Assembly (NCBI GenBank): GCA_016490735.1
Contig: JAEMWC010000378.1
Span: 353,501-417,500 of the forward strand
Length of the DNA: 64,000 bases
Source: Pachyseris speciosa
Lineage: Eukaryota > Cnidaria > Anthozoa > Scleractinia > Pachyseridae
Direction: 5' to 3'
The number at the start of each line of letters is the position of its first letter. Position 1 is the stretch's first letter. A program made the position numbers and the translations under genes. Of this stretch, positions 18,416-38,450 are shown piece after piece. The notes under the pieces are model-generated. The model ran no database searches, was not told where the DNA came from, and worked only from the letters and a program-made list of their open reading frames with translations.

Positions 18416-18760
18416 AGTAGTATAGTGTTTGGGGGTACGAAATCAATTGATTTCGTTTTCCCCAAACACTATACTACTGCCTTCTGGTCTCGTATTCTGG
18501 AATATATAGTTATTTAATTTGATGGAATATATAGTTATTTAATTTGATGGAATATATAGTTATTTAATTTGATGGAATATATAGTTATTAATTTGATGGA
18601 ATATATAGCTATTTAATTTGATGGAATCTATAGTTGTTCAATCTGATGGAACCAAGGTCAGCACACTTCATCTATAGTTTATTAAAATGCGTGACATTCT
18701 CGGAAAAATCACCAAGCGTGACATTCTCGGAAAACAGGGAATGAGTCATCGCCTATAGCT
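18416..18760. repeat. Polinton left terminal inverted repeat
   Basis: Pairs with 38105-38450. The outermost 60 bp form a self-complementary hairpin: AGTATAGTGTTTGGGG, then ACGAAATCAATTGATTTCGT, then CCCCAAACACTATACT. Next come six 24/25-bp tandem units (GGAATATATAGTTATTTAAT core, about 18508-18657) and two copies of GCGTGACATTCTCGGAAAA. Protein-primed polymerases start at such ends; the internal repeats may be protein-binding sites (inference). Confidence 0.95.
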
Positions 18761-19405
18761 GCAGAAAAAAAATAGCAAAACTGGTGGCCACCAGAACCTC
18801 TCATGAGGGACTTAATTTGGAATTTGAATCATCACCCGTCCCTCATGAGAGGTTTTTTTGTTTTATTTTTTTTGAATTCCCACCACCTCACCACCAGAGC
18901 TCTGGCCCTATCAGACCCTCTTGGGGCCAATTATTTGTTTTTTTCACCCTTCGGCTTGAGATTGAACCGGCACTTCTGTCAAGCCAAAGCTTCACTATAG
19001 CTCTACCCAACAATCCGACACCATCTAAGGGTGATTTTTTATTTTTCATTTTTTTATTTTTCATTTTTTATTTTTCATTTTTTTTATTTTTCATTTTTTA
19101 TTTTTTTTTATTTTTTCAACCCATGGAATCAACGGCGGGGGTTTTTCGTTATTCCACGGGGTGGCTTGTATACATTTCGCTAACGAAAGGCCCCCGCTTT
19201 TTCCAATCGTTAGATACTCTGCATACAAGCCACTCTTTATCTGTGTGAAACAACCCTTATATCTTCGTTTGTATTTTCATTTTTATGCTTGTGGTACATA
19301 AATGAAATTTACAAAGATAAAAAATAATACGCATGTGTAAAAGCGAAAAATCTGACGTAGTTTGATGACTCATTCGAAAGGGATCATATGGCGTGACGTC
19401 AACAG
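18761..19405. other. Subterminal non-coding region with two inverted repeats
   Basis: The sequence AACCTCTCATGAGGGAC (18796-18812) is the complement of 18839-18855, about 26 bp apart. A second nested pair includes GCGGGGGTTTTTCGTTA with TAACGAAAGGCCCCCGC and GTGGCTTGTAT with ATACAAGCCAC (19134-19231). Between them lie T-rich tracts of ATTTTTCATTTTT units. The long plus-strand frame here is low complexity and not believed. Possible roles: transcription end or regulatory structure for POLB. Confidence 0.6.
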
Positions 19406-22400
19406 CTAGATTTCATAATGTCCATAAGCATAGCTTGTCACGCCATTATCATGAATATACCGCTTGTCGTCAAAGCAGCTGAGTGATACTTTATTTATCT
19501 CATAACTTCCAAGTTGATGGTTATGACTTCTGATTGTTTTCATTCTATGATGCATCTGTTTATTATCAAATAGTGTCTCTTTATAATTTTCATGTTTGAT
19601 GTTATTCTTAATAATATTCTTCCTAATACCTTTTGCTGTCTTCCCTCCTTTCTGATCATCTTTAATATAGCTATACATCTTCGATCTCAGTCCTACGAAT
19701 TCACATATTGGGACTCCAGCAGCCTTATCTTTCATCTTACCAATTACTTTTTTATTGGTCTTATCGGAGAATGGCGAGCTTTCAGGATAGTCACTGTTAT
19801 CGAATTTATTTTTATCCTTCCAGAAATTTCTATAGATGTCATGGGTTCCAATTTCATAGGTCAGTGAGTCTGTGTCTGTGAATAATAATTTTGCTTCATC
19901 TCCATATTTCTCTTTGATGTAGTTGTAATGGAAATCGTACATCAGTGTCTTGCTAAGGTCTAGAATACACATCCCCACGTATGCTGGCCGGTTTAAAGTA
20001 AGTGTTTCTTTTATCTTATGAACAGCTACTAGATTTTCATCGAAGATTTTACTGCTAACATAAGTGGGTTTACTAGCTAATTTCAATAGCTTCTCCTCAT
20101 CAGTCACCAATCTGACGTCTACTCGCTTTCTGAGGTTTTCCATCGTTTTGCCAAATACACTGTTATTCATCAGCTTGAAAAAGTCTTTCTCAAAAGCATT
20201 TTTAGCATTCTTACGTTTTTCAGTATTGAAATCAATATATTGCCTAAGCCACGCGGACTGATTGAATTCTAACACTCGATGGATTTTAGTTATTTTCAAA
20301 CCGAGATCAGTATATAATTGGAGGTTGCTATAATGGAGCACGTATTTTTCTTTGTTGCTTAATGTTGGTATTAGTTTATGTACCAGACCAGTTGATATAT
20401 TGTATTTCTTTGCTATGTTTTTACAATAATCTGATAGCATGTCCCCAGTCACTTTAATCTTTTCCGGTCCAAGTGGGTAGTCATTATGTAGATCATGTAA
20501 CTCTTGGGGGTATTTGAGGTCAACTTCAAGTATCAACCCTTTGCACTATCTTCTTTATAGACAGCCAGGTCTAAATTATTGATCTGTTTTTGTGTCATCC
20601 ATCTGAATCCGCCTTTTGGTAAATATTGACTCATAGCCCAACCATACAAATTATTAGCATCAAGATACATGATGTATTTCGAGGGCGCCTTCTCGTCATA
20701 CTCTTTCATGTATTTATTATTTGCTTTACCGTAACGGTTGGCTATATAACTGATACCACCACGCATTCCCTTTTCATTGAAACATATCAATGTCTGTCAT
20801 CAATTCTAATTTTATGTCAGTCATTTTTAGCATGGCGTCCCAAGATAAACCGGGAGATGTGAAATAGTGACACGGGTCCAGTTTATAGTACTCAAGGCAT
20901 GTTTTTCTGAAGTTTTCAAATACATCAGCCAGTAGGAGTACATCTGTTTTAAGGTACAGGTCATGATAATCACCCATGTTTTTCAAAGAGAATGTTTCCC
21001 ACACTGTCTGAGCATGTGTGTAGTCTTCATCTGATATATGCGTATCACTCAGTATGCTATAGAATTCATCTTTTGAGGGCAGCTTCTGATTGAATTGATC
21101 GAAACTGTCCATGTAGTCGTAAGGATAAACACCTTTCTGTGCCATCAGATTAAGATCCTTTCCCTTGAACTCTTGTGAGGTGAATTTTAAGGCTTCTTTT
21201 GGTAGATTGCCTACAAGTTTTTCCAAACTGGAGCTCATGAACTGGAAACTATCAATGAAGGTCAAGTGGTTGCCAAGCATGAAAGCCATATACTTCTCCA
21301 TGTTATTTGGGATAGCATTGATGTTCATTTGACAGTCTTCACCTTTCTTGTTTTTGTAAGTGTGCTTCTTAACAATGGCTCCAATCTCCTGCATAATAAA
21401 ATGACTATCATAGCCTCTCAGATTGTGGAATATAACAGGTATTTTTATTTCTTCTGGGTTCACTCTGAGTTTCAGATTACAATCTTGGTGAGCAGAACCT
21501 CTATACTTGCCGGTAATGTGACAATGATCTCGGACTCTAATATCCTTTTCAGTATATTTCTTATCATAGATGTGACAAACTTTGGCTTTTCGGAATTTCT
21601 CTTCATCATCTTTAGTCATTTTCAATGGTTTGTTAAAATTTTTTTCACAACATTCTTGCAATATTTGACCTCCTCCAGCATAGCTTCCATAAATTTGTAC
21701 ACAGCCTTTTCACCCCTGTATATTGCTGCTGGTTTGCTGTATTTATCATCATAACAACAAACCACTTTATAGCCGTAGCCACAGTCAGTATGCTTCTGAT
21801 AAGCCTCTGTATATGATTTATCACTGTTGGGTTGGCAACCGTGTATTTTTTCAGTGATGGCCTCAAAATCAGCATAGATCACAAATGGTACCTGCTGTTG
21901 TTTATGAAAGTTGTTGAATTTCAGTATGTTGTTATCTTTGTTTGGCATTTTTATTGCCTGTGTGCCATTTACTTGCATGCAGTTGCCCTTGTGATCATTC
22001 AGAACCCTTTCAGAGCTGAAACACTGTAAGCAATGCATACAAAAGTGTTTTCTTTCTTTGTGCTTTGTTTGATTGTACATGAACTTATTGAAATCTTTGA
22101 TTAGCACATAATGCTTGTTTTCATTTTCAGTTATTAGAAGCAGATTCAAGCAGTCTGCATATTTCTCTTTTGAAACAAAAATTGGATATGGCTGTCTATT
22201 CTCATAACCAAAAACATTGATGTTGATCTCATTTTGTTTCTCTATCTTGTTGTAATGCTTGGTTGCAACTGGGAATTCAATCCCTGTATAATCCAATTTT
22301 TCAATGTATTTTTTGTCAACTTTTTTAATCCTCTGTGGGTATTTCTCTTGTGGGTTCAGGTGTCTGATGTGACACCATCGGAAGCATTCATTATCCTCAT

Positions 22401-23205
22401 TTTTCAAGTTAATTAAACCCTTCGCACTGTTTCTAAGTTCATTTGGTAGTTTTATGTATGAGGAGCCTCTCATTGGCGCATATTTCACAACATTAAGATA
22501 ATGACTATCAACTGAATCAACAGTCCAACCTGAACCTTCAGATACCCAAACTGCAATCTTATTCATTATTTGGTCTTTTGACAACTGTAGTGATTCAGTT
22601 ACTTCCAGATTATTCACAATTGTTTGAGCTACACTGTTGAAATATGCGGTTTTGTATTCTATTTCTCCGTCAGTCATTTCTGCAAATGTTACCTTGAGTG
22701 TTTCAACAAATTTGAGACCTTTAATTTCATTCAACAATTTTATAATATTATATGCAACAGCCTTTCTTGTGTTTTGCAGTTGCGCAAGCGGGTCTTTGTT
22801 ATTTTTTATACCGATTTCAAAAGATTTTGTGAAGCCCTTCAGAGCTTTCTCTGTTTGCTCTATCTTAGTCCTGGGTGTAGGTGTTGGTCTCTGAATCACC
22901 TGTTTGGTTCTGGGGGCTGGGATCGGTCTCTTTTTCAATTGTTCTATTTCTTCCAACCATTCTTTTGGTGGTGCTGGTAATCTTTTTCTTTCGAAGTAAT
23001 CAACCAATTCTTTGACAGTTGGTCTTTTCGTCCTTGGGGCGGGAATTGGTCTTGTTCTTGGTTTAGGTACAGGTTTTGTGTCATCAACTATAATAACTTT
23101 AGGCTTTTTCTGCTGCTTCAACAACAACTCGATTAGCTTAGATTTGCTCAATTTTTTAAGACTTTTCTTGTCCATATTACTACTAGTTTCGATAATTTTT
23201 TCCAT
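19406..23205 (-). pseudogene. POLB: Protein-primed family B DNA polymerase, three frame breaks
   Basis: About 1,270 codons in four consecutive frames: 23205-21622, 21661-20774, 20790-20533 and 20536-19406. N-terminus: a SAP-like LSKSKLIELLLKQ helix, three PIPAPRTK-type repeats, then a conserved Polinton domain and CMHCLQCFSS...H zinc finger. Exonuclease motifs: YADFEAI (Exo I), NLRGYDSHF (Exo II), YPYDYMDSFD (Exo III). Polymerase motifs: YLDANNLYGWAM (A), MNNSVFGKTMENL (B), FTDTDS (C). It replicates the element from its ends. Breaks: one base missing in an A-run at about 21640, an indel near 20780, and one base missing near 20537. All catalytic motifs survive, so either this is a very young pseudogene or the breaks are sequence errors. 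Confidence 0.93.
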
Positions 23206-23309
23206 TTATAATGTATCTATAGTTATTATTTCTTTAATACATTTCCGTCTGCGTTTAAATATGGTTGAGAATTCAATTGATCCAATTACTGGATCCTTTT
23301 GAATTGTAA

Positions 23310-23507
23310 TTATTGAAGAATATTTTTTTGATGTTTTTTTGTTTTAATATGACAAGATTTTCCTGCCATTGTGTAGTTACGTCCTGTCTTACATATGTTA
23401 CAGTACCATTCTTTATTTAGCATATAGGTAGTCTTGTGTTTTTTTCTTTCCTCATCACTGAGAACTCTAGGCCTTCCCCGACCTCTCTTGACATTTTGAT
23501 TCTCCAT
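23310..23507 (-). CDS. Small AT-hook plus zinc-finger protein
   Basis: 65 residues. RGRGRPR near residue 9-15 is an AT-hook core; EWYCNICKTGRNYTMAGKS followed by HIKTKKH gives a C-x2-C...H-x5-H zinc finger. Likely binds DNA within the element. ATG at 23507 follows an AT-rich TATAGATTATAT without the TCTAA motif of the virion genes. It sits between POLB and the BRO protein, in the replication/regulation half. Intact. Function in the life cycle unknown. Confidence 0.75.
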   Translation of the reverse strand: MENQNVKRGRGRPRVLSDEERKKHKTTYMLNKEWYCNICKTGRNYTMAGKSCHIKTKKHQKNILQ

Positions 23508-23540
23508 ATATAATCTATATATTTTTATTTTTATATCAAT

Positions 23541-24422
23541 TTAATTTTCTTTTAAATCTTTCCTTCTTGATAAGTATAATTTGCTTTCTTCTAAGTGTTT
23601 AGTTATTTCATGAATCAAGTCTTCGAAACTATTGCTCATGAGGTATTTGCATTTGTTTTTCTCATACATTAGCTTCATATCAGACTGTTTGTCTGACACT
23701 TTATACACACCTGTTGGGCTTTTAAATTCAAGACAAAGAGCATTGTATTTTCTTGTGGGATTCATCAGCATTAAATCACATTGTCCAGCCATATATCCTT
23801 TCTTATAACTTCTGATTCTAATGTTCGGGCTTATTTGATTTTCACCTAATCCCGCCACCATTAATGCGTCTTCATATTTCTTTCTGATGAATGACACAAT
23901 CTTGTAGTGCAGATCATCTTCACTTTCAATCATCAGCATATTATTGCTTCTGTCATTGAACTGATTGTAATACCCCTGTTTTCTGATTGATGGCAACACT
24001 TTAGATGTAACCCAATGTTTAAATTTTGCTGCTTCCTGTTTTTTAGAGGACAGTATTAGTGAATAAAATCCTGATTCATTTATAAAAAAACATTTGAAAG
24101 TTTTTTCAATGGTCTCAGCACGAGGTAACGTTTTGTTACATCGTGAATCAGTGGCCTCAGCACGAGGGACCGTTTTGTTACATCGTGAATCAGTGGCCTC
24201 AGCACGAGGGACCGTTTTGTTACATCGTGAATTTATGCTTATTTTGTGGTCTCTTAAGATTCTATCATCAGATAAAACATGATCCTTGATTGCCTTTTGT
24301 GGATTTTTATAGTCGAGAATAATAGCTATGTCTCTTCCTCTGAACCAAATGTCATTGTTATCATCAAGATAGCAATCTATTGATACATCCAATTCTTTAT
24401 TATTGTAGGAATATTTTTGCAT
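23541..24422 (-). CDS. BRO-N domain protein fused to a PD-(D/E)XK-like nuclease
   Basis: 293 residues, intact. Residues about 10-60 (VSIDCYLDDNNDIWFRGRDI, then ILDYKNPQKAI) and 108-155 (FINESGFYSLILSSKKQEAA, then FKHWVTSKVLPSIRKQG) form a BRO-N domain as in baculovirus, poxvirus and phage BRO proteins. The C-terminal half has YMAGQCDLMLMNP and ALCLEFKSPTG, the spaced D and ExK of a VRR-NUC/PD-(D/E)XK-type nuclease. Between the two BRO-N halves are three 14-residue repeats (RCNKTVPRAEATDS type). Probably a DNA-binding nuclease; role untested. Upstream of ATG: TATAATATACAA, no TCTAA motif. Confidence 0.8.
   Translation of the reverse strand: MQKYSYNNKELDVSIDCYLDDNNDIWFRGRDIAIILDYKNPQKAIKDHVLSDDRILRDHKISINSRCNKTVPRAEATDSRCNKTVPRAEATDSRCNKTLPRAETIEKTFKCFFINESGFYSLILSSKKQEAAKFKHWVTSKVLPSIRKQGYYNQFNDRSNNMLMIESEDDLHYKIVSFIRKKYEDALMVAGLGENQISPNIRIRSYKKGYMAGQCDLMLMNPTRKYNALCLEFKSPTGVYKVSDKQSDMKLMYEKNKCKYLMSNSFEDLIHEITKHLEESKLYLSRRKDLKEN
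24113..24238 (-). repeat. Three 42-bp in-frame repeats inside the BRO gene
   Basis: Three head-to-tail 42-bp units with the core GGCCTCAGCACGAGGGACCG; the first unit is the most diverged. They encode three RCNKTVPRAEATDS-like blocks and keep the frame. They split the BRO-N fold in what should be a loop. Confidence 0.9.
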
Positions 24423-24570
24423 TTGTATATTATAATAATTTATTTTTTAATTCATTTTCGACCTGTGTTTAAATATAGTCAGGAATAATAATATTCTTGG
24501 CTACATAATAGCAAATGACAGTATGTACTACTGTAGGGTCTACTCACATATATGTTAGATAATTTTCTCT

Positions 24571-25565
24571 TTATAATATGTCTTTTAAATCCTTGAACGG
24601 TATCCAACTGTTAAATTCGTCACTGTAACCCTTCCACTTCACCAAAGCTTGTTTCTTCTTGTAATCTCTGCGAATGACTTTATCAATACGGAAAACATCC
24701 TGTCTGGCTTTCAATAATTCAGCTTCATAAAAACTCCCTTCAATATCTTCTCCTCTAAGATCTTTTAGTTTGTATGTTATTGGATTAGTGTACTGGATTT
24801 TATCAACTGTAAACACTTCTTCAGTCCAATTTGGTGTATAGCCCTTGTCGAACACATTCCGTTTATACTTGGATATTCGGACCTTGTCACCTATTTTAAA
24901 TTTTGGTTTCTGTTTTAATGTTTTCATATCACCATACAAATTGAAGTAAACAGTTCCTTCATTCCTCTTATCAGATGCTTCAACGGGTGTCATCTTTGTG
25001 CTTGAATGTTTGGTATTATTATACTGTTTCACTAATTTTGGTAACATGTCTAAATACTGTGTATTACCTTGAACAGTGAACTGCTTCCACATTTTGGATT
25101 TAATTGTCCTATTCCATCTTTCAACTACTGATGACTTCTCTTCATTCTCAGTTGAGTACATCTGTACACTATGTTTCTCTAGCAAGTCCTTCAAGTGTTT
25201 GTTGTAAAACTCTTTTCCCTTGTCGACCCATAAATACTGTGGTTTTCTGCCTTCCTTGAATATTGTTTTGAATGCTTCAGTGACAGATTCACCTTTCTTA
25301 TCCTTCAATGGGACAATCCAACCATATTTGCTGAAGACATCAATAACCATAAGAAGATATCGATAACCTTTATTCCATTTACTGAACTGTTGCATTTCAA
25401 CTAGATCACTTGCCCATATTTCATCAATTTTATTTACAATCACACGCCGCCGAGTGAAATTTCGTTTTATGGGTGCATGTAATTCATCAGCTAGTTTTTC
25501 TTGCCAGTTTTCTTCACTCGACGGCTTTTTCCGTTTTTTGAAACACCAAGACCAAGTTTCTGTTT
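24571..25565 (-). CDS. INT: Retroviral-type integrase with C-terminal chromodomain
   Basis: The frame is open from about 25565 to the stop at 24571; no ATG is visible upstream of the conserved ADELHAPIKRNFTRRRV segment. The rve core shows catalytic D (EIWASDLVEM), D (LWVDKGKEFYN) and E (KSSVVERWNRT). The C-terminal 40 residues, VIRRDYKKKQALVKWKGYS then WIPF, are a chromodomain, which in other integrases tethers to chromatin. It joins element ends to target DNA and produces the 6-bp duplication. The frame overlaps the PLA2-like gene by about 75 bp in another frame, so the two may be one fused gene separated by a small indel. No N-terminal HHCC zinc domain seen. Confidence 0.9.
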
Positions 25566-26129
25566 TTTGTCAATTAAGAATCTAGCTGTTTGACCCCATT
25601 TTGGCATCTCACCATATGGTATTTGATCAAGTGACTCGACCATTGTTCTATCACATTCACCTTTATTTTTTCCCATATCATAACAAATATCATGATAAGC
25701 TGCTATTTCATCTACTTTATTGTAAGGCAGGACATTCCATTTTGTGACCTCACCTGTGTTTTTATCATACTCTAACTGTTTATCGAGGGGATTATAAGGT
25801 CCCATGTATTTATACTTTCCGGGTGTCCATCCACTTTTCGGTTTAGGAAGCTTGCCAATAACCTTATGAATGTCAATAGCACCGCCATAATCTAATCCTT
25901 TGATATCTGTTTTGTAACGAATATTTGGTCTCACGTTTGTTGAGAGTTGTTTCAAAGCTTCTGACCCAACCTTTGTGATTGCAGGCTTTGCGAGGGAAAG
26001 TCCTTTGTCAATTAATTTCTTTTGCAGCTTTGGATTTCTCATTGCTTCTGATGCATAATATCTACCCATTTCAACACCCTTCTTCGCTAAATAAGGGACT
26101 CCATGTTCCAAAAATCCTGTTAGTGCCAT
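25491..26129 (-). CDS. Phospholipase A2-like protein (parvovirus VP1u type)
   Basis: 212 residues from ATG at 26129. Residues about 105-120 hold YKYMGPYNPLDKQL, the Ca-binding loop form YxGPxNPL, and about 140-152 EIAAYHDICYDMG, the His-Asp catalytic motif of PLA2-like domains. The N-terminal 75 residues are basic and helical; the C-terminal tail is Lys/Arg-rich. In parvoviruses this domain breaches endosomal membranes; here a role in particle entry or membrane passage is inference. The end overlaps the integrase frame. Related PLA2-like domains occur next to or fused with Polinton integrases in invertebrates (from memory, unverified). Confidence 0.8.
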   Translation of the reverse strand: MALTGFLEHGVPYLAKKGVEMGRYYASEAMRNPKLQKKLIDKGLSLAKPAITKVGSEALKQLSTNVRPNIRYKTDIKGLDYGGAIDIHKVIGKLPKPKSGWTPGKYKYMGPYNPLDKQLEYDKNTGEVTKWNVLPYNKVDEIAAYHDICYDMGKNKGECDRTMVESLDQIPYGEMPKWGQTARFLIDKKQKLGLGVSKNGKSRRVKKTGKKN

Positions 26130-26169
26130 ATCTGCAGCCGAATCTAGTATGCCCGCCCCTTCAGACGGG

Positions 26170-26331
26170 CTAATTAGTTTCCCTTCCCTTTGACAAACTT
26201 AGTCTTTGTGATCCACACTCAGCACATTTGCATTTCATCATAGTTCTTCCATTTTTAGTCTTCTGGTATGTTTCGCTTCCTGGTACACACTCAGTTTGCT
26301 TCTTCTGTTTCACACAATATGATTTTACCAT
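26170..26331 (-). CDS. Small Cys-rich zinc-ribbon-like protein (DUF5679-like)
   Basis: 53 residues. Starts MVKSYCVKQKKQTEC, has KTKNGRTMMKCKCAECGS, resembling the small DUF5679 zinc-ribbon proteins of large DNA viruses and Polintons, though one expected Cys near residue 9 is Gln. A TCTAAC motif lies at 26348-26343, about 12 bp upstream of the ATG. Function unknown; possibly a virion or nucleic-acid-binding protein. Confidence 0.65.
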   Translation of the reverse strand: MVKSYCVKQKKQTECVPGSETYQKTKNGRTMMKCKCAECGSQRLSLSKGRETN

Positions 26332-26342
26332 TATACATATAA

Positions 26343-26801: not shown

Positions 26802-27654
26802 AAAATGGTTCCTAGTATGGGGATTGAATTGAATGGACTGTTTTTGCCCAGTAGAAGTCCTTTTCCTTTGGTTTTTCTTTTTTTTTTCATTCCCATGCCT
26901 ATTGGGTTATCCCATGTACCAAAAACAGGAGGGGATTGCCATGGAATCATAGCATGTTTCCCACCACTTTTATTTTTGCAATGGAATCTGGAACATGAAC
27001 TGGTAATGACCGTCTTGGACGGCTGCTTTCAACATGCAAACCTTTTCCAGTTAATTTTCTGATTGCTTCTATAGCCAAAGGAATTCCAATGCTGGCGAGT
27101 ATTGTTCCAATACCCTTTCCAGTCTGCGCTTTTGTTGGTTTTATAACAACGTCTCCACCATACTGCATTTTTTGGATAACATCAGCCATCTGTCTCGTAT
27201 TCAATAAATTTCCTACATTCAATAATTGGGATAAATTGGCATTAGGAATAAGAAATCCTCCTTTTTGTTTCTTCCCAAATAGTTTATCAACACCGAGACT
27301 TGCTAATGAAGAAAGAGCACCTGTAGCCAATGCTGGAGCCGCTTTAGCTACTGCTTTACCTGCATAAGGCAATAGTCTTGTTCCAAGTGAAAAAAGACTG
27401 GACCAAAGAGAACCTCCTTCTTGGACTGATTTTCTGATCTGTGCTTTGGATATCTTTACATCAGCACCTGTTCCATTTCTCTGTGCTTTGGCTAATTTTT
27501 TTATCTGTGTTTTTGTCAACATCATTTGATCACCTCCAGTGAGATCTCCATGTGCAAGTCTCAATGTTACCGGTGAATTTGTTTGTATAGCTTTTGCAAG
27601 CCTTTCCTTCTGACTTCCTGAAAGTCTTACTCCATGAGGATGATAAGTAGTCAT
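26798..27654 (-). pseudogene. Glycine/alanine-rich virion protein, one frameshift
   Basis: ATG at 27654. The first 235 codons carry Lys-rich MLTKTQIKKLAKAQ and KISKAQIRKSV segments, Gly/Ala-rich hydrophobic stretches (SLGTRLLPYAGKAVAKAAP) and LTGKGLHVESSRPRRS. An A-run near 26965 lacks one base, and the last about 50 codons (IPWQSPPVFGTWDNPIG, then GKGLLLGKNSPF) continue in another frame to a stop at 26798. Conserved in Polintons next to capsid genes. By layout and composition it may match adenovirus pVI/pX-type internal proteins, but I cannot show homology. Overlaps PRO by 4 bp. Confidence 0.7.
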
Positions 27655-27787
27655 ATAATATATGTTTATACTAAATTGTATTTAATACAATTTAATTTAA
27701 TTATTAATTTATTTATTATTTATTTATTTATTTAATTTATTTATTTAATTTATTTATTTATTTAATTTATTTATTTAATTATTTCAT
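27655..27787. repeat. (ATTT)n spacer between two virion genes
   Basis: AATTTATTTATTT-type units with almost no G or C separate the major capsid stop from the glycine-rich virion gene start. Includes the probable promoter of the latter; no TCTAA motif seen, but TTTAGTATAAACATAT precedes its ATG. Confidence 0.85.
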
Positions 27788-29348: not shown

Positions 29349-30134
29349 TATAATTCTGTCTCTCTCAAGAATAACTCAATATACCAATCTATCCCATTCA
29401 AATCGACTGGAGCTCCAGAAGAGTCTGTGACATAAAAGCGTATTGAGCTGATATTATGTGTTGAGATATCATTCCATTTAAGAAAAGAGGTTTGTAAGTG
29501 AAAGGTAAACTTCTGACTAGATCTGTGACTGGAATAACAGCGATTGTATTTGTGCTATTTCCATCAACAATGCTATCTGTCACCAAATCACAATTGATAT
29601 AAATTTCATCTACTCCTCTTGTAATATCAGGTAGATTTGTTCCATATTCTGTGACTGAAACTAATTTTGAATCGAAACCGATAAGTTTTCTGAAATCAAG
29701 ATTTCTCAGATCCACTCTATAGTTTTCATCAAGTTCAATCAAAATGCGATATGTTGACAAAACGAAATAAATGTTAATACCATACTTGAATTTTGATTTG
29801 TCTGTTTCAGATGGATTAAGTACATGGCTATTTTTTACTCATATACTCATGAATGTAACTATTGATATCGTCGTATGAATACATCCCGTTAACGAATGTT
29901 ATTGTTTCCCAGTTTACACCTTTGTCATAGCTGTATTTAATTTGATTATTCCCAAAAATATCTCTGATATTGTACCAACTGTATGTCATATTGATGGAAT
30001 CCACAGCTATTTTATATTTTAAATCATTCTTTAATTTTAATAGGTGTATTGAATCTTTTTTTAAAATCATGACTCTTGCTGACACCAATTTTGTCTCTGT
30101 TTTTACTGTTGAATCGTAATGAAATTTCTGTCAT
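29349..30134 (-). pseudogene. mCP: Minor capsid (penton-type jelly-roll) protein with frame breaks
   Basis: Conserved Polinton minor capsid segments: LVSARVMILKKDSIHLLKLK, YKIAVDSINMTYSWYNIRD, KYSYDKGVNWETITFVNGMY, IELDENYRVDLRNLDF, GVDEIYINCDLVTDSI and DLNGIDWYIELFLRE. They lie in three frames. Breaks: immediately after the ATG at 30134, at an A-run near 29835 (two bases short), and near 29450. Forms the vertices with MCP. A homologous relic at 47487-47740 keeps the same C-terminal order, which supports this reading. Preceded by TCTAAT at 30150-30145. Confidence 0.85.
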
Positions 30135-30144
30135 ATACTTTTAC

Positions 30145-30150
30145 ATTAGA
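30145..30150 (-). promoter_or_regulatory. TCTAAT motif upstream of the minor capsid gene
   Basis: TCTAATGTAAAAGTAT before the ATG at 30134; overlaps the end of the coiled-coil gene. Confidence 0.45.
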
Positions 30151-30345
30151 TATTTCATCATTATTTTATTTAGCTCACCGGTTTTCAGGATTCCCAGTCT
30201 GTTCAATGTATGCAATATTTTTGTGAATTCATTTTGAACATTTTTGCTGTTGTTGCCGGCTGAAATAGATCCACCAAGTAACTGCAGTCTTGAAAGCATG
30301 TCACCCAAAAATACATCCCTTGAACCCATTGCACCTCTTCTCCTT

Positions 30346-30383
30346 CCTGAACCAATAGTTGATGCCTGAACCAATAGTTGATA
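30346..30383. repeat. 19-bp tandem duplication
   Basis: CCTGAACCAATAGTTGAT plus one base, twice in a row (30346-30364, 30365-30383), differing at the last base. Looks like replication slippage and breaks the coiled-coil gene frame. Confidence 0.9.
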
Positions 30384-31020
30384 TACCTTCCTCAACAGCA
30401 TCGATTCTTTTTCGGTACTTTTGCAATAATTTGATCCTTTGAGTCAATTGATATATCTTTTCTTTGTTTTTATCCCTATTTGTTTTGGTTGTTGATAGAT
30501 GAGCTTTTTTTCTTCCAACATCTTTGGTTATTTCACCAATATTTCTTTTATACTCATCGATGTCGATTGTACCATCCATTATCCTTTTCAAAATTGTTGT
30601 TGGAGGAGACAATTCATATTCCTGTAATACCTTAACCTCATCAAGTGAAAAACCTTTATCAAGATTCGACTTATATGGTGCTTCTGTTTCAGCCATCATT
30701 TTAGGTTTGTAATCAATTGGTAATGTTGTTTTCATAGGTACTGATTCAGGTAACGTGTTTAATAGCATAAGATCTTCAAAACCAGATGTTAAGGCTTTTT
30801 GATTCTTTTTCAACTGTTCAATGACTTCATTCTGTTTTTTGTCGACACTTTCTTTCACACTCTTCTGGACATCAATAGAGGGTTTCAGTAATTCTGATGT
30901 TGTATCATAAGCATCCTGTTTTCTGTATTCATAAGTCTTGATAACATCACGAACTTCTCTTGTTTTGTTTCCAGCTTCAATTCCACTTTTAAGAAGCCTT
31001 TTCATTCGTTCTATATCCAT

Positions 31021-31056
31021 ATACAATTGTGTTAGACTAATCTAAACTATTAACAT
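31021..31056. promoter_or_regulatory. Divergent promoter between coiled-coil and ATPase genes
   Basis: 36 bp hold TCTAAC on the minus strand (31036-31031, 10 bp before the ATG at 31020) and TCTAA on the plus strand (31041-31045, 11 bp before the ATG at 31057). The two motifs face outward and are five bases apart. Confidence 0.5.
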
Positions 31057-31695
31057 ATGGAAATCCCTAATTATGATATTCAGGGTTCAAAGAATTCATT
31101 CAGACAGTTGTATCCGTATATGCCAAAAGACACTTTCAGGATGCTGCTGGCTGGTAATTCAGGATCTGGAAAGACAACACTGTTTATGCATCTGATTATG
31201 GAACCATTGGTTTATTATGATCAGATACATCTTTATGCAAAAAATTTAGATCAAGACAAGTACAAATATCTTCGGAAAGTAATGGATGAAATAAGCAGTC
31301 ACATTGGATATCCTGCCTTGGTTTGCAGTCAAGAAGAGATATTGCCAGTTGAACAAATAAAAGACACAGATTTGCAGCGATTGGTTGTTTTTGATGATTT
31401 TGTCACTGACAAGAAACAAGATCAGATAATCAGCTATTTCATTCAGGGAAGACACAAGAACTGTTCAGTCATATATCTCACACAATCATTCTATGGCTTT
31501 CCAAAATCAATCAGACTCAATTGCAGTCACTTCTGCATTTATGATTTCCCATCATCAAGAGAAAGGAATCTGATTGCACAGGAGCTTGGAATTGACAAGA
31601 AGAAATACATTGAAGCAACCAAAAAACCATATTCCTTCTGTTATGTTGACAAGCCGATGAAGACAATCAAGAGAAATTTTTATGGTGCTGTTTAA
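31057..31695 (+). CDS. ATP: FtsK/A32-like genome-packaging ATPase
   Basis: 212 residues, intact. Walker A GNSGSGKTT at about residues 30-38; Walker B LVVFDDFV at about 109-116; sensor-like VIYLTQSFYG at 135-144; C-terminal DKPMKTIKRNFYGAV conserved in Polintons. Packages DNA into the preformed capsid. N-terminal MEIPNYD is shared with the relic at 43744. First gene of the plus-strand virion cluster. Confidence 0.93.
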   Translation: MEIPNYDIQGSKNSFRQLYPYMPKDTFRMLLAGNSGSGKTTLFMHLIMEPLVYYDQIHLYAKNLDQDKYKYLRKVMDEISSHIGYPALVCSQEEILPVEQIKDTDLQRLVVFDDFVTDKKQDQIISYFIQGRHKNCSVIYLTQSFYGFPKSIRLNCSHFCIYDFPSSRERNLIAQELGIDKKKYIEATKKPYSFCYVDKPMKTIKRNFYGAV

Positions 31696-31705: not shown

Positions 31706-31711
31706 TATTAT

Positions 31712-31962: not shown

Positions 31963-31974
31963 CAAGATGATATA

Positions 31975-34900
31975 ATGGGAGTTTTTTAATGCTCAAATAA
32001 ATCAAGATAAAACAGAAACTGGAACTGGTGAAAGAGGCCCAGCTGGTCCAATTGGTCCCAAAGGTGAAAAAGGTGATAGAGGTCCAAAAGGTAATACAGG
32101 TGCAATTGGTCCACAAGGAGCTACTGGAGCCGTTGGTCCCAAAGGTGATGGATTCAAATTAACACAAGATGGTAATTATGACATTGAAAACAAAAAAATT
32201 AGTAATGTAGCAGACCCAACTTCTAACAAAGATGCTGTTAATATGAGATACGTCAACGATGCTGTTTTATCAATTGAAGGAACACGTGTTAATCCATTTA
32301 AATTTCTTCTTGAAGATATATCAAAAACAACTATTCTTAGAAATGCAAATAATCTGCAATTTGAAGACTATGATAAAAGCCCTTACTCAATAAATAAAAA
32401 ATCATTGTCTTTTGTCATCCCCACTGCTGGTCGTACAACTGTTCTTCGTTTTGATCTGACACAATTGGAAGTTTAAAAGTACACTTTAGTTGTCGAGTTT
32501 TATACTGATGGTAATCCAAATAATGCAACAGTTGATGACGATGTTTTGTCATCAAATTTAATTGAAAGAAAAGATTCGATAAAAAGAGCCTTTCCAAAGA
32601 CTCATCTTGTTGATGGTTATCTCAAGAGAATATTCTTCCTTGAAAAAACAAGTCATGGTTCCACATCAATGGAGTTATTGTTGATTTCACCATATTTATC
32701 AAATAATGCCAAACATCATGTCATAGTTTATGGTGTTTATGGATTTTCTAATATCATTTTATCACATATTCACGACCCAGCTTTTGAAATAGAAGCAGGA
32801 AGAATTGTATTTAATAATGAGGTTAAAATGAGTTTTCATAGAATAGTCAATGTTGCACGCCCTATACTTCCACAAGACTGTGCAACTAAAAAATACGTTG
32901 ATGATGCTGCCACATATCTGGCGTCAAATAAAGCGGATACAGCATATGTCAATTCTAACTTTGTGAAAAAAGATGGAAGCGTTGCGATGACTTCTGATTT
33001 GAATCTTGGAGGTAATAAATTGACTAATGTAGCAGCGCCAACAGCAAACAATGATACAGCCACAAAGGGGTATGTTGATACTGAAATTGCTGGAATTACT
33101 GGCATTGATGTTTCACCATTTCTTAAAAAAGATGGAAGTGTTGCAATGACTGGAGATTTTGACATGGGTGACAATAAAATAACAAATGTTGGATCTCCAA
33201 ACTCTGATAAAGATTCTGCCAACAAAAAGTATGTTGACGACCTTATTTTATCAGCATCTGGTACCCAACGCAACCCATTCGCTTTTCTGTTAAAAGACAA
33301 ATCCAAGTCTTCTGCAGTCAGTGGTGTGGAAAACCTTCAAATTGAGAATTTTGACAGATCACCTTATCACATAAACAAGTCGTCATTGTCTTTTTTCATC
33401 AAACGAAGAGGCAACTTTACATCCAAAATTCGTTTTGATTTGACACCTTTAACAAAAGGACGGTACACATTTGTTACTGAGTTTTACTCACCATCTGACC
33501 CAAGAAGTGCAACAGTCGAAATGTTCCTTCCAACTGTAAATATGCGAGATGCGGGACAGCCGTTTCAAAAAGCTTTCCTCAAAACTCCACACGTTGATGG
33601 TTACATGAAAAAACTTTTCCAGATAGAAAAAACAAGTGGTGGTCAAGCGGCGATTGAGGTGGAACTTTCCAGCACAGCTCCTGCGTCTAACACCAAAACA
33701 CATATCATCGTTTATGGGGCCTATGGCTATCATACCAATTTGCTTACTTTCTCCATGACCCAGCTTATGAAATTGAAAACGGCCATGTTGCGTTTGGTAG
33801 TAATATTGACATGAAATTAAACAAAATCCTCAACCTACAGGATACCCCACAAACCCACAAGATGCTGTCAATAAAAAATATGTTGATGATGAAATTTCTG
33901 CTATTGATCTTTCACCATTTGTTAAAAAAGATGGAAGTGTAGTGATGACTGGAAACTTGGGTATGGGGGGTTTATTATTAGAAACCATGGTATTGGAAAT
34001 AGCGCGGGAGATCTTGTTAACAAATCTTATATTGACGCTAATCTAGCATCTAAAAGCAATATAAATCAAAACTCTTCTTCGAGATGGAACACAAGAAATG
34101 CTTGCTAATTTGGATCTCGCAGGTTTCAAAATGATAGAAGTTGGAACACCAAATGATGACAGAGATGCTGCCAATAAAATTTATGTTGACCAGGCCCCTT
34201 TTCTTAAACTTGTTGGAGGTCAAATGGCTGGTGATATTGACATGGGTGATAACACACTCGCAAACTTAAAAGAAGGAACAAATAAAACTGATGCCGTAAA
34301 TTTAGATCAATTAGAAAAAAGTCATATTTCATCTGCTTCTCATCCAAAGAATGCTTTCAAATATTTGATGAATGATATCGATGAAGTTAGTACTGAATAT
34401 GGCTTGAAAGTCAATGGATATGTCAATTTACCTCGTTCACCGCATTTGATTTCAAAAAAGGTCATTGATATAGACTTGAATAAAGAAGCTAATCATATTT
34501 ACAGAGCTAGAATTGGATTTAATATGTACACAATAAAAGATGGAAAATACACTTTCATTCTTGAATGGCTATTTCCTGATTATGAAGGAATGAGTCTTAG
34601 TAGTGTAACATTCAGTGCAACTGGTGGAATTACAATTCATAAAACTGTAGGGAGAAAATTTGACAACAGAAAAGAAGATCATTCGAGATACTTATTATGG
34701 ATTGAAAAACCATCAGCAAGTTCACCACCTGAATATTTATATTGTACGATTCATATTAATGCTAACCCAACTTATCCAAATAAGTACAAAGTTCATTGTG
34801 TTGCATATGGTATTGATTTTGAAGCTGTAGACATTCCATCAAGTGTTTACGACTTCTCTGAACCTTTCAAAATCGTTAATGAGGAAATACAATTACAAAC

Positions 34901-35564
34901 TGATTTAGATTTGAATGGTTTTGATGTGAAAGAAAATGAAAATTGGTTGTTTGGTGGAGACAATGGTGAATTGACAATGCTGAATAATATTAATATGAAC
35001 AGCTATTTAATAAAAGAGGCTAAACTTGGTGGTGATTTAAATCTGAATGGCTTTAGAATTCATAATAATAGTTTGAATCTATTTCGTTCAAGCGTTACAG
35101 GTGTAATTATGGAAACGGCTTTCGATTTGGGTGGATTTGCTCTTTACAGGCCGAAATTAGGAGGTGATCTAAATTTGAATGGGAATGGAATAATCGGTCA
35201 AATACAATATTTAAATTGCTCTGTCAAAGCCAAACAAGGACATAATAAGAATGCTTTAAAGCCTGTATTGATAAATGGCTCTGATTTTTTAGTCATTCAT
35301 AACAATAACTTTCACATTAAGAATATGTATGTAATACAAGGAACAAAACCCGGAATATTCTACTTCAAGACAAAAGCTGAAGGTGGTAGGCCTTTGCCAT
35401 TACCAGCAACAATTTTTGAATACAGACATTCTTCTATGAGTAGAAACATCACAACGGTCAACGTCAACAAATCATTATCGAGAGGCTATTTAATCATTGC
35501 TTATTCACATCCCAATAGTGGAGAATTTGATACAGCATTCACACTTGAAGTAATTATGAATTAA
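31975..35564 (+). pseudogene. Collagen-headed repeat fibre protein 1, multiply broken
   Basis: Starts MGVF like fibre 2, then a T-run with one extra base (31981-31986). A Gly-X-Y collagen stretch follows (GPAGPIGPKGEKGDRGPKG type, about 16 triplets). The shaft is made of phage-tail-fibre-like units, DGSVAMTGDFDMGDNKITNV and NKKYVDD, recurring at least five times, with knob-like domains between. An in-frame TAA at 32474 interrupts the first knob; frameshifts lie near 33750, 33850, 33975 and 34080. The last 488 codons (34098-35564) are open. Likely host-attachment fibre. The nonsense codon is not a homopolymer error, so decay here is probably real. Confidence 0.8.
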
Positions 35565-35569
35565 TCTAA
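35565..35569 (+). promoter_or_regulatory. TCTAA motif upstream of fibre 2
   Basis: TCTAAAATAATATTAT then ATG at 35581, right after the fibre 1 stop. Confidence 0.45.
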
Positions 35570-35580
35570 AATAATATTAT

Positions 35581-36591
35581 ATGGGAGTTTTTAATTCTCC
35601 ACAAAATCAAGATAATAAAGGTGATAAAGGCGATACTGGTGCAATTGGTCCTAAAGGTGACAAAGGAATTGGTTTTACATTAACACAAGATGGTCACTAT
35701 GATCTTGGAAACAAACATTTGACTAATGTAAAAGCAGGCAATGATTCTGATCATGTTGTAATCAAATCACAAGTTTCAGATATTGTCAGAGATAGTTTTT
35801 TGGATTTATGGGTTTCTGAATTCATCAGATTATACTCTAAATGTACTTATCAAATCGACAGAGCGAATAATAATTTTTTAGATATGAATGCAGACAGAAA
35901 AGTTGAAACATTGTACGATCTCTCGAATGAAGAAAATAATGCAACACAATCAACTTTAAACATAAGACCCACTGTTTGTACCAAGGCTGAGAAACATAAT
36001 GGACGTTATTTTTTGAAGTTTGATGGATCACAGAGAATGATAAGTCAAATCAATTTGAATAATGATGTTGTTAATGTCTTTATTGTTTATAAATTAAATT
36101 CAAATACAGGTGGAAGTCCATGGAAAAATGGTCTTTTTGGTCATGATAATAGAGGTTATGATAAGTTTGTCAGCTATTACAATGGTTCAAATTTAGTTAT
36201 AAGTGGTGTTGATCAATCAAATTGTGTATATTTTGGTTCAGCAGCATCTATACAAAGTTTCAGAAAAATAGCAGATTATTCAGTAAATGATTTGGGTCAA
36301 ATAAATGTTTGGCACTGCTTGTCTGTTCACTGGGATAATTTATCTTCTCCAAAAACAAACACAAGTAAAATCTATTGGAATAAAAAACATATTGGAAGTT
36401 TTACAGCGGCTAGCAGAAGTGGTAGTCGGCAAATGACTTTTGGTGATTTGGATCCTAGCTCCATCGCACCTCTTGACGGTAGTGTTATTTTTTTCTGTGT
36501 GTACTTGGATTCTATATTAGACGAAAAAACAATTTCAGATCATCATCAAATTTTAATCCAACGATATAATATAAATGAACAAAATAATTAG
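35581..36591 (+). CDS. Collagen-headed fibre protein 2 with lectin-like C-terminus
   Basis: 336 residues, intact. MGVFNSPQNQ head, short collagen stretch GDKGDTGAIGPKGDKG, one fibre unit (TLTQDGHYDLGNKHLTNV), then from about residue 130 a jelly-roll/LamG-like domain with KHNGRYFLKFDGSQRM, VNVFIVYKLN, NVWHCLSVHWD and a VIFFCVYLDSILDEKTI end. The head and first unit are paralogous to fibre 1, so the two arose by duplication and then acquired different knobs. Probably binds a cell-surface sugar or protein (inference). Overlaps the next gene by 17 bp. Confidence 0.75.
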   Translation: MGVFNSPQNQDNKGDKGDTGAIGPKGDKGIGFTLTQDGHYDLGNKHLTNVKAGNDSDHVVIKSQVSDIVRDSFLDLWVSEFIRLYSKCTYQIDRANNNFLDMNADRKVETLYDLSNEENNATQSTLNIRPTVCTKAEKHNGRYFLKFDGSQRMISQINLNNDVVNVFIVYKLNSNTGGSPWKNGLFGHDNRGYDKFVSYYNGSNLVISGVDQSNCVYFGSAASIQSFRKIADYSVNDLGQINVWHCLSVHWDNLSSPKTNTSKIYWNKKHIGSFTAASRSGSRQMTFGDLDPSSIAPLDGSVIFFCVYLDSILDEKTISDHHQILIQRYNINEQNN

Positions 36592-37049
36592 ATATGTGAG
36601 ATGGTTTATTCGGGATGCCGAACGGAAAAACCCTGGTGTTGACAAGAGGATTTTGAAATCAGCTTTGGTTTATCAGTTTCTATATCACAAACATTTTAAC
36701 AAGTATGTTGAGGTGAGAGATATCCTTTTGGAGCATGAAGACATTGGATTAATTGGATATGGTGATGGTTGCCTGACACATTTGTTGGAGCATACTCTTG
36801 GATGGATTAATGTGTTGCAAACACATGCAATATTACATGATGCTTTCGGTCGATTCTACGTCAAACATTCACTTGACAGAGGATATTCTTATGCTTTCCC
36901 CGTTTCTTGACAACGAAATTGAACAAATTGTCACCTCTAAGTGGACAATTGTCTGGTTTGTGGTACTGCGTGTTGAACAGAATCGTTATATAAGCATATT
37001 GTATGAAAGACAGAAAGAGCATATTCAACTGGAACCATATTTCAGGTGA
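36575..37049 (+). pseudogene. Unknown Polinton protein with frame breaks
   Basis: The ATG at 36575 opens MNKIIRYVRWFIRDAERKNP, then LLEHEDIGLIGYGDGCLTHL and LQTHAILHDAFGRFYVKHSL; this frame stops at 36910. A segment reading LSGQLSGLWYCVLNR (about 36943-36990) and then YISILYERQKEHIQLEPYFR (to 37049) follows in other frames, so two small indels are suspected. No family recognised. A TCCAA variant of the promoter motif lies about 12 bp upstream. Confidence 0.5.
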
Positions 37050-37487
37050 ATTAACAGAAGATCAGGTAAATGAATTAAAATCCTATTACCGAACATATCA
37101 CAGAAAGTGTTGGGCTCATAAACAGGCTGTTAAACGGTTCAAAAAATGGAAATTACTGGGAATTCCTTGTCCATCATCTTTGCAACTGGGGGTCTCGCCA
37201 CAAGTGTGGCAACAGGTGGTGTTAGTTTGGTAGCCATCAGTACAGCAGCACTTTTGATACAAGGGTGGATGAAGCATAAAAACCTAGATTTGAAAATCCA
37301 GAATTGCACATATGCTTATCAAAGCTATCAACATCTACTCAATTCAATAAAAGACAAGTTGAGAAGTGGTGATTTTGATGCTTCAAGTATACAAATCTCA
37401 ATGAAGAATATCGATGATTATGTGACTGACAATAGTCCAATTATTGATAAGTACCTACAGAAATATGATGAAAAATTCACTGCTTGA
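37003..37487 (+). pseudogene. Two-helix membrane protein, one frameshift
   Basis: ATG at 37003. N-terminal ELTEDQVNELKSYYRTYHRK is conserved in Polinton proteins; after VKRFKK an A-run near 37145 lacks one base, and the rest continues in another frame: SIIFATGGLATSVATGG and VSLVAISTAALLIQGW make a hydrophobic hairpin, followed by YAYQSYQHLLNSIKDKL and a C-terminal IIDKYLQKYDEKF. Suggests a membrane-anchored virion or entry protein. Ends 11 bp inside the convergent zinc-ribbon gene. Confidence 0.6.
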
Positions 37488-38040
37488 TAATACGAATAAT
37501 CTTATCAAATCTCAACAATAGAATCTCAACCCAATATTGATCATAAAATCCAAGCGTCTTTTTTGATCTAGTAACTATTATTTCATCAAATGGAAGATCA
37601 AGCATTAAAAATATTTGCTTAAGCATAAATTTAGTGCTAATCATTCTTTTACGATTCTTATTCACCAAAGGAAGGACAGTGTCTATCTCTTCGAATATTT
37701 TCAATATTTTACCCTTATCTTTTACAGAAATTTGAAATCTATTCTTGCGACATATACCATTTATCACATTTTCAATATGGTACTTCCGGTGATATACAGA
37801 TTTTCGCCGTATTTTACACATATTATTATGAAAGTCAACATACTCCTTACAATAGTCATAACCATGGACGGAACCACAATTTAGACAAACATTTTCACCA
37901 TCATCGTTAAACATTTTCTGATTATCACAGCAAGGTGCTTTCACACTTTTAACAACTTTGACCAATAGCTGATCACAAAAATAACATGACAATTCTCCCA
38001 TATTCTTTAATTCATTGTGGATTACTGAATTACAACTCAT
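37477..38040 (-). CDS. Zinc-ribbon transcription-factor-like protein
   Basis: 187 residues, intact. Cysteine pairs CYFCDQ, APCCDN and VCLNCGSVHGYDYC form one or two zinc ribbons; then SVYHRKYHIENVINGI, MISTKFMLKQIFLMLDLPF and a TLGFYDQYW end. The layout resembles TFIIB-like ribbons and the poxvirus/NCLDV late factor VLTF3 (A2L type), but I can only suggest this. If so, it could drive the TCTAA-class genes. It lacks that motif itself (ACATAATATTATAGA before ATG), as expected for an earlier-expressed regulator. Confidence 0.55.
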   Translation of the reverse strand: MSCNSVIHNELKNMGELSCYFCDQLLVKVVKSVKAPCCDNQKMFNDDGENVCLNCGSVHGYDYCKEYVDFHNNMCKIRRKSVYHRKYHIENVINGICRKNRFQISVKDKGKILKIFEEIDTVLPLVNKNRKRMISTKFMLKQIFLMLDLPFDEIIVTRSKKTLGFYDQYWVEILLLRFDKIIRIIKQ

Positions 38041-38104
38041 TCTATAATATTATGTGATATTTTATTTTTATGTAACCATCGGATGGTTCCACGTGAGAAA
38101 TAAT

Positions 38105-38450
38105 AGCTATAGGCGATGACTCATTCCCTGTTTTCCGAGAATGTCACGCTTGGTGATTTTTCCGAGAATGTCACGCATTTTAATAAACTATAGATGAAGT
38201 GTGCTGACCTTGGTTCCATCAGATTGAACAACTATAGATTCCATCAAATTAAATAACTATATATTCCATCAAATTAAATAACTATATATTCCATCAAATT
38301 AAATAACTATATATTCCATCAAATTAAATAACTATATATTCCATCAAATTAAATAACTATATATTCCAGAATACGAGACCAGAAGGCAGTAGTATAGTGT
38401 TTGGGGAAAACGAAATCAATTGATTTCGTACCCCCAAACACTATACTACT
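38105..38450. repeat. Polinton right terminal inverted repeat
   Basis: 346 bp, reverse complement of 18416-18760 except for one indel and one substitution inside the tandem units. Contains the same six 25-bp units and terminal hairpin. Confidence 0.95.

What the first reader, a model, noticed from the sequence alone, without database searches (positions are those of the whole stretch)
18416..38450. Complete, recently inserted Polinton with the full core gene set in an animal intron
All six core Polinton functions, 345-bp inverted repeats differing at two sites, and a 6-bp duplication are present in one window. The low inverted-repeat divergence points to a recent insertion or active homogenisation. 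That makes it a candidate for an element still able to move or form particles in a cnidarian.
Basis: partly seen in the sequence, partly recalled or inferred. Interest (0 to 1): 0.85.

Follow-up and report, generated by a model that had tools for sequence, protein, structure and literature searches.

The report
Decayed Polinton, integrase by ribosomal frameshift
This is one decayed copy of a virus-like Polinton transposon family that has multiplied recently in what is probably a coral genome, and its integrase is likely made by a programmed backward slip of the ribosome, as retroviruses do, which would be a new trait for this group.

Summary
A Polinton lies exactly at 18416-38450, with 345/346-bp inverted repeats differing by one substitution and one indel. 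"Complete and possibly active" does not hold for this copy: DNA polymerase B changes frame three times, the penton-like gene is broken, and a fibre gene has an in-frame stop and a frame change. Its 6-bp duplication cannot be judged, as both flanks are a period-6 microsatellite, but 22 of 25 paired family copies have matching 6-bp flanks. The family is recent: 8 of 25 pairs show no substitution between repeats, and the 121 scored integrase matches are 98-100% identical. One frame break looks functional. The integrase is in the -1 frame of a phospholipase-A2 gene and has no ATG before its first catalytic Asp; no integrase frame of 121 is long enough to include PLA2. A slippery A AAA AAC in correct phase sits 7 nt before a 14-bp helix, the longest behind any of 907 such heptamers in the window, found in 13 of 13 copies read. 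Some relatives encode both in one frame. I propose -1 ribosomal frameshifting; untested.

The parts
18416..18760 (+). left terminal inverted repeat, 345 nt, POLB side
38105..38450 (-). right terminal inverted repeat, 346 nt; 1 substitution and 1 indel from the left
18416..18478 (+). 63-nt terminal near-palindrome (DNA dG -25.9; 2,000 shuffles -4.2 +/- 1.8)
   Evidence: nine sequence types over 59 termini
38388..38450 (-). the same terminal near-palindrome at the right end
18410..18415 (+). AGTAAC, left flank; inside (CAGTAA)n, so a duplication cannot be told from the microsatellite
38451..38456 (+). AGTAAC, right flank; start of a ~490-bp CAGTAA/CAA array
21622..23205 (-). POLB piece A
   Evidence: in one open frame with piece B in 6 of 8 siblings
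20774..21709 (-). POLB piece B (another frame), PF03175 38.5 bits
20536..20796 (-). POLB middle piece (another frame)
19406..20545 (-). POLB piece C (frame of piece B)
23541..24446 (-). BRO-N protein with a weak C-terminal VRR-NUC match (E=0.049, below cut-off) and three short internal repeats
24571..25569 (-). integrase ORF (rve + chromodomain), in the -1 frame of PLA2; first ATG lies after the first catalytic Asp
25491..26198 (-). phospholipase A2-like ORF (PF08398)
25533..25539 (-). slippery heptamer A AAA AAC in the PLA2 zero frame
25513..25525 (-). 5' arm of the predicted stimulatory helix, 7 nt after the heptamer
25446..25458 (-). 3' arm of the predicted stimulatory helix
26364..26906 (-). 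adenain-like protease (sub-threshold Pfam; adenovirus-type protease E=0.002)
26947..27681 (-). small protein, no family match
27788..29071 (-). major capsid protein, open, nearest relatives 74-76% identical; predicted double jelly-roll
29398..30130 (-). penton-like gene in two frames; identity by position and recall only
30141..31041 (-). protein without a confident family match, split in two frames
31054..31695 (+). packaging ATPase (Pox_A32), open
31976..33814 (+). fibre gene: collagen-like start (above cut-off), T7-tail-fibre-like (just below cut-off) and repeated modules; in-frame stop at 32474-32476
34065..35564 (+). continuation of the fibre gene in another frame (sub-threshold YadA-stalk match)
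35575..36591 (+). second fibre gene, open: short collagen-like stalk plus predicted ConA-like lectin knob; 122 relatives
37477..38049 (-). VLTF3-like late transcription factor (PF04947, 25.4 bits, cut-off 25)

Best explanation
The element is one decayed copy of a large, recently amplified Polinton family, and its integrase is likely produced by -1 programmed ribosomal frameshifting from the phospholipase-A2 gene as a PLA2-integrase fusion. Shown: the integrase ORF overlaps the PLA2 ORF in the -1 frame and has no ATG before its first catalytic Asp; none of 121 scored integrase copies has a frame long enough to include PLA2; a canonical slippery heptamer in correct phase is followed after 7 nt by a 14-bp helix, in 13 of 13 copies read; some relatives encode the two proteins in one frame. 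Inferred: most ribosomes would make the PLA2 protein and a minority slip at A AAA AAC and continue into the integrase (about 222 + 320 codons), so that integrase is tied to a particle-associated PLA2 protein at low dose, in the way retroviruses tie Pol to Gag. Inserted copies then decay separately; this copy has lost POLB and the penton-like gene and would move, if at all, only with proteins from other copies.
For: Family and recency: 40 full-length TIR hits at 96-100% (40 scored of 1,920 first-look candidates); 25 paired elements of 18.9-21.1 kb, 22 of 25 with matching 6-bp flanks, 8 of 25 with no TIR-TIR substitution. Integrase: 121 of 121 scored matches have open frames of 331-345 aa without internal stops, and none reaches the ~540 aa of an in-frame fusion. 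Junction read in 12 of 14 sampled siblings (8 of 8, 4 of 6; the other 2 stretches missed the gene): all 12 and the window have the same -1 arrangement, the heptamer and the same helix. Signal strength: of 907 X3Y3Z heptamers on both strands of the window, only this one has a helix of >=12 bp with >=5 GC pairs 5-9 nt downstream. A helix of >=14 bp occurs in 1 of 10,000 dinucleotide shuffles, and none of 10,000 synonymous redraws of the integrase frame exceeds 12 bp. Product: of 120 listed relatives, 27 carry more than 80 residues ahead of the integrase N-terminal motif, with a similar junction; 19 carry 12-80, 20 fewer, and 54 lacked the motif and were not classed. Several are PLA2 + rve + chromo in one protein, one of them named Oculina patagonica. 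12 of 120 are separate ORFs whose start matches, by motif, a -1 reading of the PLA2 end, and a 13th (P0136) is a fusion with that reading. Decay differs between copies: the three POLB junctions are open in 6, 7 and 4 of 8 siblings and the penton junction in 8 of 8.
Against: No expression or ribosome data. The heptamer alone means little: 73% of synonymous redraws of this lysine-rich tail contain one. Fold energy alone is modest (z -2.6; 16 of 1,000 shuffles; 101 of 1,697 element windows are as stable). The helix thresholds were set after I had seen the helix. Heptamer and arms do not vary among the 13 copies, so there is no covariation test; such young copies could share an inherited accident. 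The 121 scored copies are the best-scoring of 5,089 candidates, so the absence of stops is biased; their separation from PLA2 is read from frame length, not from upstream sequence, except in the 13 copies read. Several relatives have their own ATG in the presumed -1 frame, so another start is possible there. L088 and L089 did not contain the junction.
Confidence: 0.6

Rival explanations
1. The PLA2/integrase frame split is an inherited accident of the founder copy; the family multiplied with integrase supplied in trans or made at low level by chance, and the heptamer-helix is coincidence.
For: The copies are young and could share one mutation; the heptamer is expected by chance in 73% of redraws; no variation in the signal to test.
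Against: The integrase frame stays open in 121 of 121 scored (best-scoring) copies; separate ORFs that by motif read the PLA2 end in the -1 frame occur in 12 of 120 relatives less than 90% identical to this family; the helix is the longest behind any of 907 heptamers.
Confidence: 0.23
2. Integrase is made through splicing or a separate, non-ATG or upstream-ATG start, without frameshifting.
For: In several relatives the presumed -1 ORF has an upstream ATG (for example P0123, P0184).
Against: In this family that ATG is followed by a stop in the same frame and no ATG precedes the first catalytic Asp; intact vertebrate Mavericks were reported without introns (PMC8097293, passages).
Confidence: 0.12
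3. One reading: a complete, recently inserted element still able to move or make particles.
For: Near-identical TIRs, open MCP and ATPase, recent family.
Against: POLB frame changes at three places, the penton-like and fibre genes broken.
Confidence: 0.05
4. The frame breaks are assembly errors, and the copy is in fact open.
For: I had no reads; the assembly method is unknown to me.
Against: The same assembly reads the three POLB junctions open in 6, 7 and 4 of 8 siblings and the penton junction open in 8 of 8, so it can resolve these genes; the fibre stop lies in frame between two open stretches of the same frame, which a single indel error would not give.
Confidence: 0.1

Closest known systems
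Polinton/Maverick elements (Kapitonov and Jurka 2006, recalled; intact vertebrate Mavericks, PMC8097293, passages)
   Same: ~20 kb, long TIRs, 6-bp flanking repeats in sibling copies, PolB, rve-chromo integrase, ATPase, protease, predicted double jelly-roll MCP
   Different: Integrase in the -1 frame of a PLA2 gene with a frameshift-like signal; terminal 59-63 nt near-palindromes; phage-like fibre genes, BRO-N and VLTF3-like genes; this copy not intact
Adintoviruses (PMC11071296, passages)
   Same: rve integrase with C-terminal chromodomain, adenain-like protease; that preprint predicted -1 slippery sites in penton genes and saw a similar relation for hexon-adenain
   Different: In the passages seen the predicted shift is in penton or hexon, not in integrase; I did not test the OTU-like PolB domain that defines the group
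Retroviral gag-pol -1 frameshifting (recalled)
   Same: A particle protein upstream, a homologous integrase downstream in the -1 frame, A AAA AAC-type heptamer, stem after a short spacer
   Different: A DNA transposon/virus, no reverse transcriptase found; upstream protein is PLA2-like, not Gag; unproven by experiment
Polinton-like viruses of protists with phage-like fibres (PMC12220804, section 13 part 1 read)
   Same: Collagen-like, phage-tail-like and LamG/ConA-like modules in fibre genes
   Different: Here in a probable animal Polinton with rve integrase; no Peptidase_S74 chaperone domain among the Pfam hits

Membership tests
Polinton/Maverick | Long terminal inverted repeats, element of about 15-25 kb | tested here: met
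   345/346 bp, 20,035 bp; 25 paired family copies of 18.9-21.1 kb
Polinton/Maverick | 6-bp target-site duplication | tested here: inconclusive
   In this copy inside a period-6 microsatellite; matching 6-bp flanks in 21 of 24 other pairs
Polinton/Maverick | Family-B DNA polymerase (protein-primed) | tested here: met
   PF03175 in piece B only; broken in this copy; protein priming not tested
Polinton/Maverick | Retroviral-type integrase | tested here: met
   rve + chromo above cut-off; PFV integrase E=5e-7; D-D-E at residues 55, 116, 150
Polinton/Maverick | Packaging ATPase and C5-type protease | tested here: met
   Pox_A32 61.8 bits; protease only by weak matches
Polinton/Maverick | Double jelly-roll MCP and single jelly-roll penton | tested here: inconclusive
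   MCP model (pLDDT 72.9) matches double jelly-roll capsids of iridovirus, PBCV-1, Sputnik, mavirus, PRD1; penton not identified by any search
Intact Maverick (PMC8097293) | All conserved ORFs uninterrupted | tested here: not met
   POLB and penton-like genes interrupted
Adintovirus | PolB with N-terminal OTU-like domain | not tested
   POLB piece A had no Pfam match
Adintovirus | rve integrase with C-terminal chromodomain | tested here: met
-1 programmed ribosomal frameshift site | X XXY YYZ heptamer in zero frame, 5-9 nt spacer, downstream stem or pseudoknot, -1 ORF | tested here: met
-1 programmed ribosomal frameshift site | Measured -1 product | not testable with these tools
   no expression data

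The most novel reading that the evidence does not exclude
A capsid-bearing DNA transposon expresses its retrovirus-type integrase the way retroviruses express Pol: by -1 ribosomal frameshifting from a particle-associated membrane-active protein (PLA2), so that integrase would be packaged into the particle as a minor fusion. This would link Polinton transposition to a virion stage and make 'Polintons are viruses' testable by finding the fusion protein.
Probability: 0.5. Interest if true: 0.78.

Novelty: new variant of a known kind. Interest (0 to 1): 0.6.

Why it matters
Polintons encode capsids, yet particles had not been observed as of a 2021 survey (PMC8097293, abstract start). A PLA2-integrase fusion made at a set low ratio would make most sense if integrase travels with a particle protein, which gives a concrete protein to look for. 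It would also add DNA transposons to the users of retrovirus-like recoding. For the host, the data describe a genome with at least 121 nearly identical integrase copies of one Polinton family, a recent burst that can be dated and mapped.

Tried and rejected
Viral contigs: three scans (MCP, MCP alignment, integrase) and one scan of prokaryote genomes (integrase) found no relative, so no second DNA source for the overlap was available. Empty allele or haplotig search with the flanks did not complete (right flank; left flank). Genome-wide counts for MCP and PLA2 did not complete either (MCP; PLA2). Terminal palindromes as parvovirus-like replication hairpins: considered, not adopted. They sit exactly at all 59 termini, but 30 of 59 carry a shortened form with an unpaired bulge, and an inner A.C mismatch is common, with one copy restoring a pair, so strict pairing is not required. 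PDB sequence search with the MCP profile and POLB piece C gave nothing useful. The Foldseek top matches of the fibre knob were the lectin-like part of clostridial neurotoxin receptor-binding regions at TM (query) 0.34-0.46 and 11-17% identity among the 50 listed. I read this as the common ConA-like lectin fold only, in line with 2 of 37 relatives matching Laminin_G_3. Selection on integrase: 0-3 synonymous and 0-1 nonsynonymous differences per pair of copies over 112 codons, too few to use. Pseudoknot partner for the helix loop: at best 7 bp with the following stretch, not claimed. Papers: nine searches; in their listings and the passages I opened I saw no report of a frameshifted Polinton integrase. 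One paper that holds the three terms, PMC12567637, speaks of frameshifting only for a tombus-like virus (passages).
Full report
What is there. The window is G000:C378:353501-417500 of a 983.7-Mb assembly in 2,368 contigs. The element spans 18416-38450. Its repeats of 345 and 346 nt differ by one substitution and one indel and contain a run of about six 25-bp units each. The one coral-named integrase relative in the list is from Oculina patagonica (P0195). Size and contig number remind me of the coral Pachyseris speciosa (recalled, unverified; PMC11370458, one passage read, says only that this is one of two coral assemblies larger than 822 Mb). 'Coral' is therefore an inference.

Target site. 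The flanks read AGTAAC on both sides, but the left flank ends in about five CAGTAA units and the right flank is about 490 bp of the same kind of array, so an apparent 6-bp duplication is expected either way. I therefore looked at sibling copies. Of 59 termini with base 1 matched, all 59 begin AGTAGTATAGTG; 25 elements could be paired, and 22 of 25, this one included, have identical 6-bp flanks (C1521, C1834 and C367 do not). So the family makes 6-bp duplications, although this copy cannot show it.

Age and numbers. TIR-TIR substitutions range from 0 to 11 per 257-345 compared columns; 8 of 25 pairs have none and this copy has one. Without a mutation rate I give no years. The integrase query gave 121 scored matches out of 5,089 first-look candidates, all 121 at 98-100% identity: a recent burst, with counts as lower bounds.

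Genes. Pfam matches above cut-off: POLB (piece B), BRO-N, rve and chromodomain of the integrase, a PLA2-like domain, the ATPase, a collagen-like start of a fibre gene, and a VLTF3-like factor just above its cut-off; the T7-tail-fibre match is just below. The MCP has no Pfam match, but 2,192 relatives and a predicted fold whose 50 listed PDB matches include double jelly-roll proteins of iridovirus, PBCV-1, Sputnik, mavirus and PRD1 (mean pLDDT 72.9). The fibre gene at 35575-36591 has 122 relatives, with a predicted lectin-like knob (pLDDT 80.6; weak structural matches; 2 of 37 relatives hit Laminin_G_3). Bacteriophage-like fibres with such modules are described in protist Polinton-like viruses (PMC12220804, section 13 part 1).

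What is broken. POLB changes frame near 21.63, 20.78 and 20.54 kb; the penton-like gene changes frame near 29.83 kb and has its first 31 residues in a different frame from 8 of 8 siblings; 30.1-31.0 kb is split; the fibre gene has an in-frame stop and a frame change. In pieces of eight siblings the three POLB junctions are open in 6, 7 and 4 of 8, and the whole fetched 1.7 kb is open in 2 of 8; one sibling (C221) shares the first break exactly. The penton junction is open in 8 of 8, one of which is broken a little upstream. So these are losses that differ from copy to copy, some of them shared by a few, and by the published criterion (PMC8097293, passages) this copy is not intact. I did not ask whether any sibling is wholly intact.

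The frame that does not look like decay. PLA2 (26198-25491) and integrase (25569-24571) overlap by 79 nt, integrase in the -1 frame. In the integrase frame the first ATG is residue 59, after the first catalytic Asp at residue 55, and the nearest upstream ATG in that frame is followed by a stop. Of 14 siblings sampled at this place, 12 contained it, and all 12 have the same arrangement (8 of 8; 4 of 6). In the whole genome, 121 of 121 scored integrase matches have open frames of 331-345 aa (70 of 332, 40 of 336, 11 others), never the ~540 aa of an in-frame fusion; upstream sequence of these was not read. Yet some listed relatives carry PLA2, rve and chromodomain in one ORF of 428-576 aa. Among 120 listed relatives, 27 have more than 80 residues ahead of the integrase motif, with a similar junction; 19 have 12-80, 20 fewer, and 54 lacked the motif. 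12 of 120 are separate ORFs whose start matches, by motif, a -1 reading of the PLA2 tail, as here, and a 13th (P0136) is a fusion with that reading.

The signal. The PLA2 zero frame contains A AAA AAC at 25539-25533, followed by 7 nt and a helix with arms 25525-25513 and 25458-25446 (13 bp in the fold, 14 with a further G-U pair; 8 GC), dG -24.3. Controls: a heptamer by itself is expected in 73% of synonymous redraws, and the energy is only z -2.6, with 101 of 1,697 element windows as stable. The position-specific helix is rare: 1 of 907 heptamers in the window with >=12 bp and >=5 GC (threshold chosen after seeing it), 1 of 10,000 dinucleotide shuffles at >=14 bp, none of 10,000 synonymous redraws above 12 bp. 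The heptamer is present and the same helix is predicted in the window and 12 siblings, although the four siblings differ from the window by 0.8-2.1% in this stretch.

Mechanism. I commit to -1 programmed ribosomal frameshifting making a PLA2-integrase fusion of about 222 + 320 codons. The frame geometry, conservation and helix are shown by calls; the slip, its ratio and the packaging of the fusion are inferred. The closest published idea that I saw is the prediction of slippery sites in adintovirus penton genes and a similar relation for hexon-adenain (PMC11071296, passages); my searches listed no such claim for integrase in the held library.

Surroundings. A second, older Polinton remnant lies at 43.1-48.7 kb (fragments of ATPase, of the protein at 30.3-31.0 kb, of the penton-like gene and of MCP, at 43-69% amino-acid identity). 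FN2 modules on the minus strand flank the insertion (17.0, 18.1, 40.7, 41.3, 62.3 kb), in line with an intron of a multi-FN2 gene, without transcript proof.

Verdict. Ordinary in kind, a Polinton copy that is partly dead, but with a shared recoding-like arrangement of the integrase that is new to me and testable.

Noticed in passing
   Followed up: partly
window 18416-18478 and 38388-38450; 59 family termini: Every examined terminus begins with a 59-63 nt near-palindrome that folds back on itself (28 of 31 possible pairs here); 5' arm the same in the nine types, 3' arm varies, 30 of 59 carry a shortened form. No Polinton terminal hairpin was mentioned in the passages or listings.
   Followed up: partly
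window 23541-24446: BRO-N protein with a weak VRR-NUC match (E=0.049); a BRO-N-VRR-NUC fusion was called not previously described in a dinoflagellate PLV in 2025 (PMC12721341, passages), so the fusion may also occur in this Polinton. Three 43-bp repeats (91-100% alike) sit inside the gene.
   Followed up: no
window 37477-38049: VLTF3-like late transcription factor (just above cut-off) with a sub-threshold A2L-type zinc ribbon beside the right TIR, a giant-virus type gene.
   Followed up: no
window 18075-18213: The FN2 module nearest the insertion (about 200 bp away) changes frame within the domain, so the host exon itself may be dead.
   Followed up: no
G000:C823:144748 and 146961: One sibling has two right termini 2.2 kb apart with the same flank, a local duplication of its end.
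   Followed up: no
L080, L083, L086, L087: Four siblings carry a different version (about 62-68% identical where aligned) of the protein at 30.1-31.0 kb next to a penton-like gene 74-94% alike, a sign of recombination between subfamilies.
   Followed up: no
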